Positions 809-33,459 of a stretch of 33,684 nucleotides of DNA are shown one piece after another. Source of the DNA: an uncultured bacterium (GTDB taxonomy: Bacteria; Patescibacteriota; Gracilibacteria; Absconditabacterales; Absconditicoccaceae). The stretch's first letter is position 1; each line of letters begins with the position of its first letter. The position numbers and the translations under genes are program-made. The notes under the pieces were generated by a model. The model was not told where the DNA came from, did not search any database, and was given only the letters and a program-made list of their open reading frames with translations. The stretch lies in contig CAMOEC010000016.1 of assembly GCA_946611795.1 (NCBI GenBank), positions 1-33,684 of the forward strand, in the 5' to 3' direction.

Positions 809-1471
809 ATGTTCGGTCTTTTTTTTGTTTGATTGTGATCCATAGCGTTTAATCCTTCTCATGCTATTGATCCAATAGCTTTTCGTTGAGAGGTAACTGT
901 AAGTAAGACATATGCTAATACATCAGATGATGATTCTTTTCAAAAGTTCTTAGATAAAGATCATTTTTTTTCTAAAATAGATTATGGTCCAAGTGATTTG
1001 AAGGCTATTGAATCTGATTTTACTGCTAATAATTCTAGGAAGTTCTTGTTAAGAGAAGAGGCTTGAAAAGCATTCGCTGATATGGCTTGGAATTTTCAAA
1101 ATGATTTTAATTGAAAGAAAAAGCTATCAATTAATACTGCTTATAGATCATATCAGTTGCAGGAATATTTAATGAAGTCATATTGTAATGGCAGAGCATG
1201 ACAATGTGCTTTACCATGAACTAGTGAACATCAGGCTTGATTGGCTGTTGATTTATGAGTTAATGGTAAAAGTATAGATAATGAAAGTTTCCAATGGCTT
1301 CAAAATAATGCTCATAAATGGTGATTCCATAATACTTATCAAAAATGAATTGAAGTGGATGGTCAAATAGTTGAACCTCGGCACTGGAGATATTTATGAG
1401 TAGAATTGGCAACAGAATTATATAATAATAAGCAGAGTTTTGCGGAGTGGTATTATGGGCTTGAAAGATAG
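809..1471 (+). CDS. secreted VanY-type D-Ala-D-Ala carboxypeptidase (peptidase M15)
   Basis: A zinc carboxypeptidase that would trim D-Ala from peptidoglycan stem peptides outside the membrane. Residues 1-19 (MFGLFFVGLGSIAFNPSHA) form a signal peptide. The mature domain has the M15B motif S-E-H-Q-A-G-L-A-V-D, giving the zinc-binding His and Asp, and a final E-P-x-H-W-R-Y carrying the catalytic Glu and third zinc ligand. Many TGA codons are read as Gly. The x in E-P-x-H is CGG (1379-1381); the family has an almost invariant Trp here (EPWH), so CGG may be read as Trp. ATG 809 is in frame with the signal peptide; ATG 804 is out of frame. The product is 220 residues. It could be an accessory wall hydrolase for remodelling or for attack on a host cell; the sequence does not decide. 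Confidence 0.87.
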
Positions 1472-7773: not shown

Positions 7774-7788
7774 GCTTTTGTTCTTTTT

Positions 7789-7860
7789 GCTCCTGTAGTT
7801 CAATGGATAGAATAGGCCCGTCCTAAGGGTTAGATGCTGGTTCGATTCCGGCCAGGAGTA
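7789..7860 (+). tRNA. tRNA-Arg, anticodon CCU
   Basis: The cloverleaf is complete. The acceptor stem GCTCCTG pairs with CAGGAGT (one G-T pair) and the discriminator is A7860. The anticodon stem is GGCCC/GGGTT with loop GTCCTAA, so the anticodon is CCT, reading AGG. The T arm is GCTGG-TTCGATT-CCGGC. CCA is not encoded. AGG and AGA are the main Arg codons in this window together with CGT; CGA and CGG are very rare, so this tRNA serves the main Arg box. Confidence 0.93.
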
Positions 7861-7912
7861 GATGATATGAAAATATTCTTGTATAAAATATTTTATTTGC
7901 TTTTTGATAGCT

Positions 7913-13747: not shown

Positions 13748-14035
13748 ATGCGAGAAAACTTTATAGCTTTTATGGCAGAGTATAATGTTGTTGGAATGGC
13801 AATTTGATTGTTAATTTGAGTTAAAGTTTGAGAATTTGTAAAGTCTATTGTAGAAGACTTAGTTACTCCTTTGTTCTTTACTCCTATTTTTAAGAAATTG
13901 AAGATTGAAAAATTAGAAGATCTTTCATGGCATGGAGTATTATATGGAAAGGCTTTAGCTAGACTTATAGATTTCTTGTTAACTGCTTTTATCGTATTCT
14001 TAGTAATTCATTATTTATGAGTAGAAAAGGCTTAG
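13748..14035 (+). CDS. mscL: large-conductance mechanosensitive channel MscL (short form)
   Basis: A stretch-gated channel that releases solutes on osmotic downshock. The 95-residue product has the MscL layout: an amphipathic start (MRENFIAFMAEYNVVGMAIG), a first membrane helix with Gly-rich pore positions (GLLIGVKVGEFVKSIVEDLVTPL, matching the family's VGAAFGKIVSSLVxDIIMP), a periplasmic loop of about 35 residues, and a second helix (FLLTAFIVFLVIHYLGV). Three Gly in the first helix are TGA-encoded. It is shorter than the E. coli protein (136), mainly because the C-terminal helix bundle is missing. The second codon is CGA, so that residue may be Arg or Trp. Confidence 0.8.
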
Positions 14036-20319: not shown

Positions 20320-21774
20320 ATGAAAACTTGAGTAAAAATACGATTATTTTGATGAGCTCTAACAATATTTTGACTTTTTGCTGTTTATAGCACTAGTATT
20401 TGGAAATCTTTTGATCAGAGATTGACAGTGAGTGTTATGCAGAATATTGAGACAGTAAAAGCATTTAATACTTTTCTTGATGATACTATTATATCAACAA
20501 CTCAAAGTATTATTGATAAAGTTCAAATCAATAGTGTTGCAACTACAGAGTCGTTGTGAACTGGATGATTTATGTCTTGAGAAAATGCTGCAAGTTGAAA
20601 CAATGAACTTGGAATATCATGAAATTTAGTTCCTACTTTGGATACCTTAAAGAAGGACGGTGATGATCAGGTAAAGTTGGTTGATCAATGAACCAGAAAA
20701 GTTCAATTAAGAAATAATTATGTATTGTTTCGTTCTCAAATAAGAAATCTTATTGTTGCGTTGGTGGCAATCTTTTTTGTTTATTTTATTCCATTAGGTT
20801 GGCTTAAAGAGAAAAAGTTTGTCTATTTCTTTGTGATTTTGACTTTTATATTCCAACTTTTAGTATTCTCTCCTTTGGCGGCTACAAATGGTGAAGCCAG
20901 ATGATGGGTTGATTTATGAGTTTTGCCAAATATGCAGCCATCAGAGTTTTTTAAGGTCTGATATGTTATTTTTATGGCATATTGGCTTACTAAAAGAAAG
21001 GATGATATTAATGAAAAGTGATTTTTGAATAAATTTTTTATTCAGTTTACTATGATTAATTTTTTTGTTCTTACAATTATCCTTTGTATCCCAGATATGT
21101 GAACGTTGTTTATCCTTGCTTTAACAGGAGTTATCATGGCGTGGTATATGTGATTCCCTGTGAAAAAAATTGCGTTCCTATGATTATGTGCTTTATTTGT
21201 TGCAAGTTTTTGAGTTTTTGTTTTGAGTGTGGTAAATCCTGATAATTATGCTTATCATAGAATTAAGACATTCTTTACAACTGATGAACAGGAAAAGAAG
21301 GATATTGAGTTGAAAGATTGATGGCAAATACAACAATGAATTATTGCTATTTGAGCATGAGGTTTCTTTGGTCAATGATATGGTAAGTGACTTCAGAAAA
21401 TGTGACAATTGCCAGAAGCTTATTCAGATATGATTTTTGCAGCTTATTCAGAAGAAATTTGATTCTTTGGAAATATGGTGCTTTTTGCTCTTTATATTGG
21501 TTTATTTATTACAGTATTAAGGCGTATTGCTGAAGTAAAAGATCCTCAGATGAGAGTTCTTTGTGTTTGAATTATTTCTTTGATAACGGTTCAAGTTTTT
21601 GTACATATTTGAGTGAATGTTGAAGTACTTCCTAATACTTGATTAACATTACCTTTTATTAGTCATGGTTGAACAGCGCTTTTGATTAATTTGGTTGAAT
21701 TAATGTTGCTTTATAAAATTCTTAGTACCGTTAAAGAAAGCTCTCCTAGAGAGATTAGAATAGATAATGAATAG
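20320..21774 (+). CDS. SEDS-family peptidoglycan polymerase (FtsW/RodA) with a large insertion
   Basis: A multi-spanning glycosyltransferase that polymerises lipid II. Family hallmarks: GEARGWVDLGVLPNMQPSEF (about 191-210), GWQIQQGIIAIGAGGFFGQG with EAYSDMIFAAYSEEIGF (carrying the catalytic Asp), and NTGLTLPFISHGGTALL near the C-terminus. Most of the Gly are TGA codons. The first membrane helix is about residues 7-28, ending AVYSTS like the family's VYSAS. Between it and the second helix (about 142-160) there are roughly 100 extra residues, Ser/Thr/Asn-rich with a GGFMSGENAASGNN stretch; most SEDS proteins have only a short loop. Length 484. FtsW versus RodA cannot be decided; no cognate PBP gene is next to it. 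Confidence 0.9.
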
Positions 21775-31331: not shown

Positions 31332-32012
31332 TTATTGAGGTGGTTGGATGAGTTTCCAATCACCTTTTTTTAATCAATCTAGATTCCGGTTAGCTATTCT
31401 TATTCTTTTTAGATAGATGACTTTATTGTTGATGGATTCTAACATCCTTTTTACTTGATGATATTTTCATTCTGTGATGGTAAGAAGGATCTTTTTGTCT
31501 TCAAGTTTTTTTACCTTTGCAGGTTTTGTTTTATAACCATCATCTAGAATAACTCATTTTTCTAATTTGATACAATCTTCATCTGAAATTTCTTTTTCAA
31601 GATGAACTTCATATTCCTTTTCTTTATCTCGTTTAGGAGAAATAACTTGGTGGATGAATTGGCCATCATTTGAGAGAAGTAGGAGTCATTCGGTATCGAC
31701 ATCTAATCTTCATGCAACGTGAAGAAGATTAACATAGGGACATGATAGCATTTGTTTTTTATAACTTGGATATCAAAATTCATCTTCATCTGATGAGATA
31801 TATCCAGAGGATTTATAAAGGATAGCATAAATGTTTTCTAAAACTTCTATTTCTTGTCATTTATAGGTTATTCTATCTCATTCTTTTATTTTAATATCTG
31901 ATTTTTTAGCTATTTCTCAATTAAGTAAAATTTCTCCTTTTTTACATGAAAGAGGAGCTTCTCTTCTACTTAAAAGTCATAAATTTGCTAAATATTTATC
32001 AAGTCTTTGCAT
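31332..32012 (-). CDS. RsuA/RluB-family 16S/23S rRNA pseudouridine synthase
   Basis: Converts a uridine in ribosomal RNA to pseudouridine. An S4-like N-terminal domain is present (MQRLDKYLANLGLLSRREA, residues 1-60), then the catalytic motif HVAGRLDVDTEGLLLLSNDG with the invariant Asp of GRLD. KEKEYEVHL, TEGKYHQVKRM and IYLKRIRI follow, and the C-terminus is LDGLKKGDWKLIQPPQ, matching the family's Lx-L-x-x-GEWR end. Length 226. In this family the Gln-Val-Arg-Arg-Met motif is normal; here it is QVKRM. One CGG (31386-31388) is at a position usually hydrophobic, and one CGA is after SPK. The substrate site cannot be told. The C-terminal codons also form the terminator hairpin of the convergent gene. 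Confidence 0.88.
31338..31371 (+). terminator. terminator of the 30009 gene inside the pseudouridine synthase gene
   Basis: AGGTGGTTGGA (31338-31348) and TCCAATCACCT (31355-31365) make an eleven-pair stem (one G-T) with a six-base loop, followed by six T. It lies 16 bp after the stop of the plus-strand gene, inside the last 13 codons of the minus-strand gene. Confidence 0.8.
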
Positions 32013-32013
32013 T

Positions 32014-33459
32014 TTATTCTCTTGAAATTAATTTTACGAAAGTATCTGTTGGAACTTCTACATTACCAATTGCTTTCATTCTCTTTTTTCCTTCTTTTTG
32101 TTTTTGAAGGAGTTTTCTTTTTCTACTAACATCTCATCAGTAACATTTAGCAAGGACATCTTTTTTTACTGCAGCAATATTTTCACGAGCTATGATTTTA
32201 TTTCATAGTCCTGCTTGAAGAGGAATTACAAAAAGGTGCTTTGGTATAAGTGTTTTAAGTTTTTCTACTACTTCACGTCAAAGATAATATGCTTTATCAT
32301 TATGAACTATCCATGTTAATGCCTCAACTTTTTCATTATTGATAAAGATATCAAGTTTTACTAAATCATCTGCTTGATAACATTTGAATTCGTAGTTCAT
32401 TGTTGCATAACCTTTAGTTGATGATTTTAAACGGTCATAAAAATCAACAATGATCTCTCACATAGGGAGTTCATAATGCCAAACAACTCTTGTTTCATCA
32501 AGATATTCCATATGCTTTAATTTTCATCTGTATTCTTGGCAGAGCGCCATTATATTTCATGCGAATTCTTCTGGTCAAACTATTTCTACATTAGAGATTG
32601 GTTCAAGAATTTCTTCTACCATTCCTTGGTCAATCATATCAGATCAAGATTTAACTACAATTCGTGATTTTAGAATTTCTCATAGTTTTGTAAAACGAGG
32701 ATTTTCAAGCATTGTTCAGAAAATTCCTTCAGCGTGTTCAAAAATAGCTATTTCTTCAGGAGTAAGTTGATAATTTTCTCTTTTTAGAATCTCATGATAG
32801 AGCCCTGTTTGAACTAATCCTTTTATATTCATCCCTGTTTTAATAAGAGGAATTGAAAGGTTTTTTGATTTAACAAGATACATTACTGTTGGTATTGTGA
32901 AAATGGTATCAAGTCAGTATTCACGGAATAGTCTTTCTTTGATAATGTCCATATGAAGCATTCATAGGAATCAACAACGGAATCCTAATCAGAGAGCTTT
33001 TGAATCTTCCATTTCATAAGTTACAGCACTATCATTGAGAGAAAGTTTTTCTAGGCTATCTTTAAGTTTATCATATTCTGTTGAATCGATTGGATAAACT
33101 CAAGCATACACATATGGAGTTACTTTCTTAAATCCTGGAATAAGATATTGATTGTATTTTCAGGCTTCTTCTAGTTTAGTTAGCTTTGTTTTGATGATAG
33201 TATCTCAGATTTGAACATCTCTTACTGATTTTTGTCAGGTTACGATGTACCCTATTTGTCATTCATCAAGAGATTTGTCTGCATGGTATTCTGGAGTAAA
33301 ATGTCCTACTTCTGTTGGTTGAAAAGATTTTTCAGAGTGAATAAGATAAACTTCTTCTCAAGCAGAAAAAGATCAATCAACAACTTTTACGTATGCTAAT
33401 ACTCATTTATAAGGGTCAAATACTGAGTCGAATATAAGTGCTCTTGATATATTTTCCAT
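32014..33459 (-). CDS. lepA: EF4/LepA-like protein lacking the GTPase domain
   Basis: The 481 residues match LepA from domain II onward. [22 protein letters not shown] equals the family's [41 protein letters not shown]-like [34 protein letters not shown], the FDRLKSTSRGYA-like [13 protein letters not shown], and the LepA-specific end [20 protein letters not shown] with [13 protein letters not shown] are all present. The G domain (about 190 residues with P-loop and NKxD) is absent: the frame has a stop four codons upstream of ATG 33459, and no frame in the 225 bases left in the window resembles it. An insertion (about residues 195-275) makes up for the length. It lies one base upstream of the pseudouridine synthase start, so the two are cotranscribed. 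Confidence 0.9.

What the first reader, a model, noticed from the sequence alone, without database searches (positions are those of the whole stretch)
1379..1381. CGG at the invariant Trp of a VanY-type peptidase: evidence for CGG = Trp
The M15 peptidase motif is E-P-[CGG]-H-W-R-Y. In this family the residue is nearly always Trp (EPWH), next to the catalytic Glu and a zinc-binding His. An Arg would be odd in an otherwise perfect site. CGG occurs only twice in the coding sequence of this window, by my hand scan. The other CGG (31386-31388, pseudouridine synthase) is at a position that is usually hydrophobic. I recall that reassignment of CGA/CGG to Trp has been reported for Absconditabacterales by codon-alignment screening.
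Basis: partly seen in the sequence, partly recalled or inferred. Interest (0 to 1): 0.8.

Follow-up and report, generated by a model that had tools for sequence, protein, structure and literature searches.

The report
CGG and CGA codons mean tryptophan
In this uncultivated bacterium the codons CGG and CGA, which mean arginine almost everywhere else, are read as tryptophan; this is a real departure from the universal code, but it was already published in 2021 for the bacterial group this genome appears to belong to.

Summary
CGG at 1379-1381 sits at the invariant Trp of a VanY/M15 peptidase (EP[CGG]HWRY); reading it as Trp raises the Pfam VanY score from 68.2 to 76.8 bits. In a 356-kb sample of the genome, CGA/CGG codons align to Trp at 42 sites and to Arg at 3, while AGA behaves as Arg (662 against 2). 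In the same-genus genome G002, 34 of 40 unambiguous partners of these codons are TGG. The tRNAs with anticodons CCG and UCG carry tryptophan identity elements (A/G1:U72, G73, no A20); Arg-type tRNAs found are UCU, CCU and GCG. One TrpRS was found, and no RF2. In 15 related genomes the peptidase's two Trp positions hold TGG, CGA or CGG interchangeably, while the neighbouring Arg is never CGA or CGG; another family of the class uses CGA as Arg. This is the code reported by Shulgina and Eddy (2021) for Absconditabacteria. It is real, well supported and already known. A possible small addition: tRNA relationships hint that CGG changed before CGA.

The parts
1379..1381 (+). CGG codon read as Trp (W191 of the VanY-type peptidase)
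   Evidence: W gives +8.6 bits to PF02557; TGG at this site in same-genus genome G002; CGA here in family members G011 and G096
809..1471 (+). M15/VanY-type peptidase gene (TGA=Gly, CGG=Trp), 220 aa
   Evidence: PF02557; motifs SEHQAGLAVD and EPWHWRY intact when CGG=Trp
31386..31388 (-). second CGG codon, pseudouridine synthase (IRIAN[CGG]NLDGL), read as Trp
   Evidence: aligned to TGG in G002 (LRIGD[TGG]NLDGI)
31629..31631 (-). CGA codon read as Trp, pseudouridine synthase (VISPK[CGA]DKEKE)
   Evidence: aligned to CGG in G002 and to Tyr in G139
32662..32664 (-). CGA codon read as Trp, LepA-like GTPase (EILKS[CGA]IVVKS)
   Evidence: aligned to TGG in G002 (EILRP[TGG]IVVKS)
20341..20343 (+). 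CGA codon, FtsW/RodA-like protein (TGVKI[CGA]LFGGA), read as Trp
   Evidence: CGA at the same site in G002; meaning inferred from the genome-wide code
13751..13753 (+). CGA codon 2 of MscL-like channel (M[CGA]ENFIAFM), inferred Trp
   Evidence: for position; Trp meaning inferred from the genome-wide code, not tested at this site
7788..7861 (+). tRNA-Arg(CCU), true arginine tRNA (has A20)
   Evidence: ARAGORN; D-loop AATGGATA

Best explanation
The genome uses the Absconditabacteria-type genetic code: UGA=Gly, and CGA and CGG both = Trp. tRNAs with anticodons UCG (reads CGA and, by wobble, CGG) and CCG (reads CGG) carry tryptophan identity elements and are presumably charged by the single tryptophanyl-tRNA synthetase. 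Arg is decoded by tRNAs UCU, CCU and GCG. CGG at 1379-1381 is therefore an ordinary synonymous alternative to TGG at the invariant Trp of a VanY-type peptidase. Shown: codon positions, codon-to-residue alignment statistics, tRNA genes with their identity elements, one TrpRS, an RF1-type release factor as the only match to the RF2 model. Inferred: charging of these tRNAs with Trp, and exclusive Trp insertion in vivo.
For: Site-level tally in 356 kb of this genome: CGA 37 sites with Trp partners, 2 with Arg; CGG 5 and 1; controls AGA 2 and 662, CGT 0 and 111, TGG 201 and 2. Likelihood of Trp over Arg +350 bits for CGA and +40 for CGG, Trp the best of 20 residues (sites hit in several genomes are counted more than once there). 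Same-genus G002: partners of CGA are TGG 32, CGA 12, CGG 4, Arg codon 1. tRNA-CCG has A1:U72, G73, U20; tRNA-UCG has G1:U72, G73, U20; Arg tRNAs UCU, CCU and GCG have A20. The 9 CCG and 7 UCG tRNAs recovered from the window's family are all Trp-type, while those of all other families except f14 are Arg-type with A20. Peptidase site in 15 other family members: TGG, CGA or CGG at both Trp positions, never CGA/CGG at the Arg. Family f22, with CGA at the Arg of HWRY, is the contrast. Codon usage CGA 21 and CGG 3.5 per 10,000 lies inside the published range for Absconditabacteria.
Against: Three CGA/CGG sites align to Arg and 15 to other residues; these could be substitutions or alignment noise. 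CGG has few independent sites (7 informative). Charging of the tRNAs was not tested, so some ambiguous Arg insertion cannot be excluded. The organism's name could not be read from the tools.
Confidence: 0.96

Rival explanations
1. CGG is still Arg; the peptidase simply has a Trp-to-Arg substitution or is degraded.
For: A single site can always be a substitution; 3 CGA/CGG sites in the sample align to Arg.
Against: 42 sites align to Trp; the tRNAs with CCG/UCG are Trp-type; family members place CGA/CGG at the two Trp positions of the same motif, never at its Arg.
Confidence: 0.02
2. CGA/CGG are ambiguous, inserting Trp mostly but Arg (or another residue) at some rate.
For: Charging specificity is inferred from identity elements only; the published report also leaves ambiguity open.
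Against: CGA aligns to Trp about as often as TGG does in the same-genus comparison (84% against 87%).
Confidence: 0.08
3. Sequencing error or assembly artefact: the true codon is TGG.
For: The genome is a draft of 81 contigs.
Against: 158 CGA and 26 CGG codons in sampled genes, with Trp-type alignments, the same pattern in independent genomes, and cognate tRNAs.
Confidence: 0.01

Closest known systems
Absconditabacteria (SR1) code, Shulgina and Eddy 2021 (PMC8629427): UGA=Gly, CGA and CGG=Trp
   Same: Same three reassigned codons, same tRNA complement (GCG for Arg; UCG and CCG with Trp identity), low G+C, rare CGG and slightly commoner CGA
   Different: No difference found; taxonomic name of this genome not confirmed
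Gracilibacteria with CGG=Trp (same paper)
   Same: UGA=Gly and CGG=Trp; family f14 here (closest to the two named Gracilibacteria peptidases) shows it: CGG 15 Trp to 1 Arg, Trp-type tRNA-CCG
   Different: f14 has almost no CGA (17 in about 64,000 codons) and no UCG tRNA was recovered from it; the window's genome uses CGA as Trp
CGG=Trp in Anaerococcus and in a clade of Bacilli (order RFN20) (same paper)
   Same: Same sense of CGG reassignment
   Different: CGA stays Arg there, no UGA=Gly, unrelated phylum
NCBI translation table 25
   Same: UGA=Gly
   Different: Table 25 leaves CGA/CGG as Arg, so proteins of this group translated with it carry Arg at these Trp codons

Membership tests
Absconditabacteria genetic code (UGA=Gly, CGA/CGG=Trp) | UGA read as Gly, with tRNA-Gly(UCA) and no RF2 | tested here: met
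   TGA aligns to Gly at 573 of 732 positions against G043; UCA tRNA with G1:C72, C2:G71, G3:C70, U73; only match to the RF2 model is below its cut-off and reads as RF1; the genome is about 90% complete
Absconditabacteria genetic code (UGA=Gly, CGA/CGG=Trp) | CGG aligned to conserved Trp | tested here: met
   5 Trp sites, 1 Arg, 1 other
Absconditabacteria genetic code (UGA=Gly, CGA/CGG=Trp) | CGA aligned to conserved Trp | tested here: met
   37 Trp sites, 2 Arg, 14 other
Absconditabacteria genetic code (UGA=Gly, CGA/CGG=Trp) | tRNA-CCG and tRNA-UCG with G73, not A20, A/G1:U72 | tested here: met
Absconditabacteria genetic code (UGA=Gly, CGA/CGG=Trp) | Trp charging and incorporation in vivo | not testable with these tools
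   Needs biochemistry or proteomics
Absconditabacteria (taxon) | Placement of the genome in order Absconditabacterales | not testable with these tools
VanY / M15 peptidase (PF02557) | SEH..GLA.D and E.WH motifs, score above cut-off | tested here: met
   76.8 bits against cut-off 25; motifs intact

The most novel reading that the evidence does not exclude
The reassignment happened in two steps: CGG became Trp first in a common ancestor of the Gracilibacteria-like family f14 and the window's family, using a Trp-type tRNA-CCG still kept by f14 and by two genera of the window's family; CGA followed only in the window's family, when a Trp-type tRNA-UCG arose and later supplied a second tRNA-CCG lineage.
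Probability: 0.3. Interest if true: 0.4.

Novelty: already known. Interest (0 to 1): 0.25.

Why it matters
Sense-codon reassignments in bacteria are very few, and this genome is a clean confirmation of one of them, with about a fifth of Trp codons now CGA or CGG. In practice, gene annotations of this group made with table 25 put Arg at many invariant Trp positions, and tRNA finders label the two Trp tRNAs as Arg.

Tried and rejected
A first codon tally contained spurious antisense reading frames that inflated Leu partners of CGA and Trp partners of AGG; keeping only the best-scoring of overlapping frames removed this, and the idea that the Leu excess meant a further ambiguity in family f22 was dropped. 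The one scan of named genomes used patterns with standard Trp and Gly codons, so it found almost only other phyla; it served to check that the Trp is invariant (80 of 80), with the caveat that one of its two patterns contains that Trp. Overall identity of the UCG/CCG tRNAs to other tRNAs did not settle whether they descend from tRNA-Arg or tRNA-Trp; the tree of 72-base tRNAs is only suggestive.

Full report
Observation. Bases 1379-1381 read CGG, codon 191 of a 220-residue ORF at 809-1471 that is open when TGA is Gly. The context is VEP[CGG]HWRYLG. The protein matches PF02557 (VanY) at 76.8 bits when the codon is Trp and 68.2 bits when it is Arg, and solved D-Ala-D-Ala carboxypeptidases align Trp to it (EPWHYRYVG, EPWHIRYVG).

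The same site in relatives. Among 15 further members of the window's family, the Trp before the His is TGG, CGA or CGG, the Trp after it is TGG, CGA or CGG, and the following Arg is never CGA or CGG. Examples: EP[CGA]HWRY in G011 and G096, EPWH[CGA]RY in the same-genus G002, EG[CGG]H[CGG]RY in G118. In family f22 the reverse is seen: EPWHW[CGA]Y and EPWHY[CGA]Y, where CGA fills the Arg position. Reading by the new code makes W191-H-W-R-Y invariant in a 16-sequence alignment. In 80 relatives from other genomes, mostly other phyla, the residue is Trp in all 80 (one of the two search patterns contains this Trp, so the set is not wholly unbiased).

Codon meaning across the genome. ORFs from 356 kb of this genome were compared with about 400 kb each of G002 (same genus), G043 (same family), G139 (family f14) and G075 (family f22), with CGA and CGG masked on both sides and overlapping antisense frames removed. 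Counting each site once: CGA 37 Trp, 2 Arg, 14 other; CGG 5 Trp, 1 Arg, 1 other; AGA 2 Trp, 662 Arg; CGT 0 Trp, 111 Arg; TGG 201 Trp, 2 Arg. Against G002 alone, CGA pairs with TGG 32 times, with CGA or CGG 16 times and with an Arg codon once. In the window, the CGG in the pseudouridine synthase (31386-31388) and the CGA in the LepA-like GTPase (32662-32664) both align to TGG in G002. G002 and G043 give the same result for CGA; G139 gives CGG=Trp (15 Trp, 1 Arg) with CGA almost unused; G075 gives CGA and CGG=Arg.

Decoding machinery. The genome holds tRNA-CCG (C37) with A1:U72, G73 and U20, and tRNA-UCG (C36), just upstream of tRNA-Trp(CCA), with G1:U72, G73 and U20. By the rules used in the 2021 study these are tryptophan acceptors. 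True Arg tRNAs are UCU, CCU and GCG, all with A20. Nine CCG and seven UCG tRNAs of the window's family are all of the Trp type; the UCG and CCG tRNAs recovered from families f5, f6, f7, f8, f10, f16, f19, f21, f22 and f23 are of the Arg type (A20; A73 in all but one); six CCG tRNAs of f14 have A1:U72 and G73, the Trp type. One TrpRS and one TyrRS were found. The tRNA-Gly(UCA) has the glycine identity elements, and the only match to the RF2 model is below its cut-off and reads as RF1.

Most likely mechanism. CGA and CGG are read by tRNA-Trp(UCG) and tRNA-Trp(CCG), charged by the one TrpRS; Arg is confined to AGA, AGG, CGU and CGC. Charging is inferred from identity elements and was not tested. 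About a fifth of Trp codons in the sampled genes are CGA or CGG.

Comparison with what is known. This is the code described for Absconditabacteria by Shulgina and Eddy (eLife 2021, PMC8629427): UGA=Gly, CGA and CGG=Trp, with CGG below 7 per 10,000 codons in all but one species and CGA below 37 in all. This genome has 3.5 and 21. The same paper notes CGG=Trp in some Gracilibacteria, which matches family f14: the two named Gracilibacteria peptidases found here are closest to f14. A 2026 paper (PMC13092985) takes the code as established for Absconditabacterales. The name of the window's organism could not be obtained, so its membership in that order is inferred.

Possible small addition. In a tree of 72-base tRNAs with the anticodon masked, the UCG tRNAs and most CCG tRNAs of the window's family form one group (support 0.96; the family's tRNA-Gly(UCA) also falls inside it), while the CCG tRNAs of two of its genera (G102, G118) group with those of f14 (0.88). 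This fits a two-step history, CGG first and CGA later, but the sequences are short and no species tree was made.

Noticed in passing
L110 (G139:C4), L323-L327: Family f14 (Gracilibacteria-like): CGG=Trp with Trp-type tRNA-CCG carrying encoded CCA, and CGA almost absent (17 of about 64,000 codons).
   Followed up: partly
L111-L130 (G075), L068, L072: Family f22 of the same class reads TGA as Gly but keeps CGA and CGG as Arg, with an Arg-type tRNA-CCG.
   Followed up: partly
L018 1355-1573: tRNA-Trp(UCG) lies about 75 bases upstream of tRNA-Trp(CCA) in the same orientation; in G002 the two genes are on different contigs.
   Followed up: no
L328, L329 (G118, G102): tRNA-CCG of two genera of the window's family resembles those of f14 and not the CCG/UCG tRNAs of the rest of the family.
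   Followed up: partly
L010 967-1040: ARAGORN labels the UGA-decoding tRNA as tRNA-SeC; its acceptor stem (G1:C72, C2:G71, G3:C70, U73) is that of the known tRNA-Gly(UCA).
   Followed up: yes
L007/L008 and L033/L034: tRNA-Phe(GAA) and tRNA-Ser(GCT) each appear twice near contig ends, probably assembly ends and not true duplicates.
   Followed up: no
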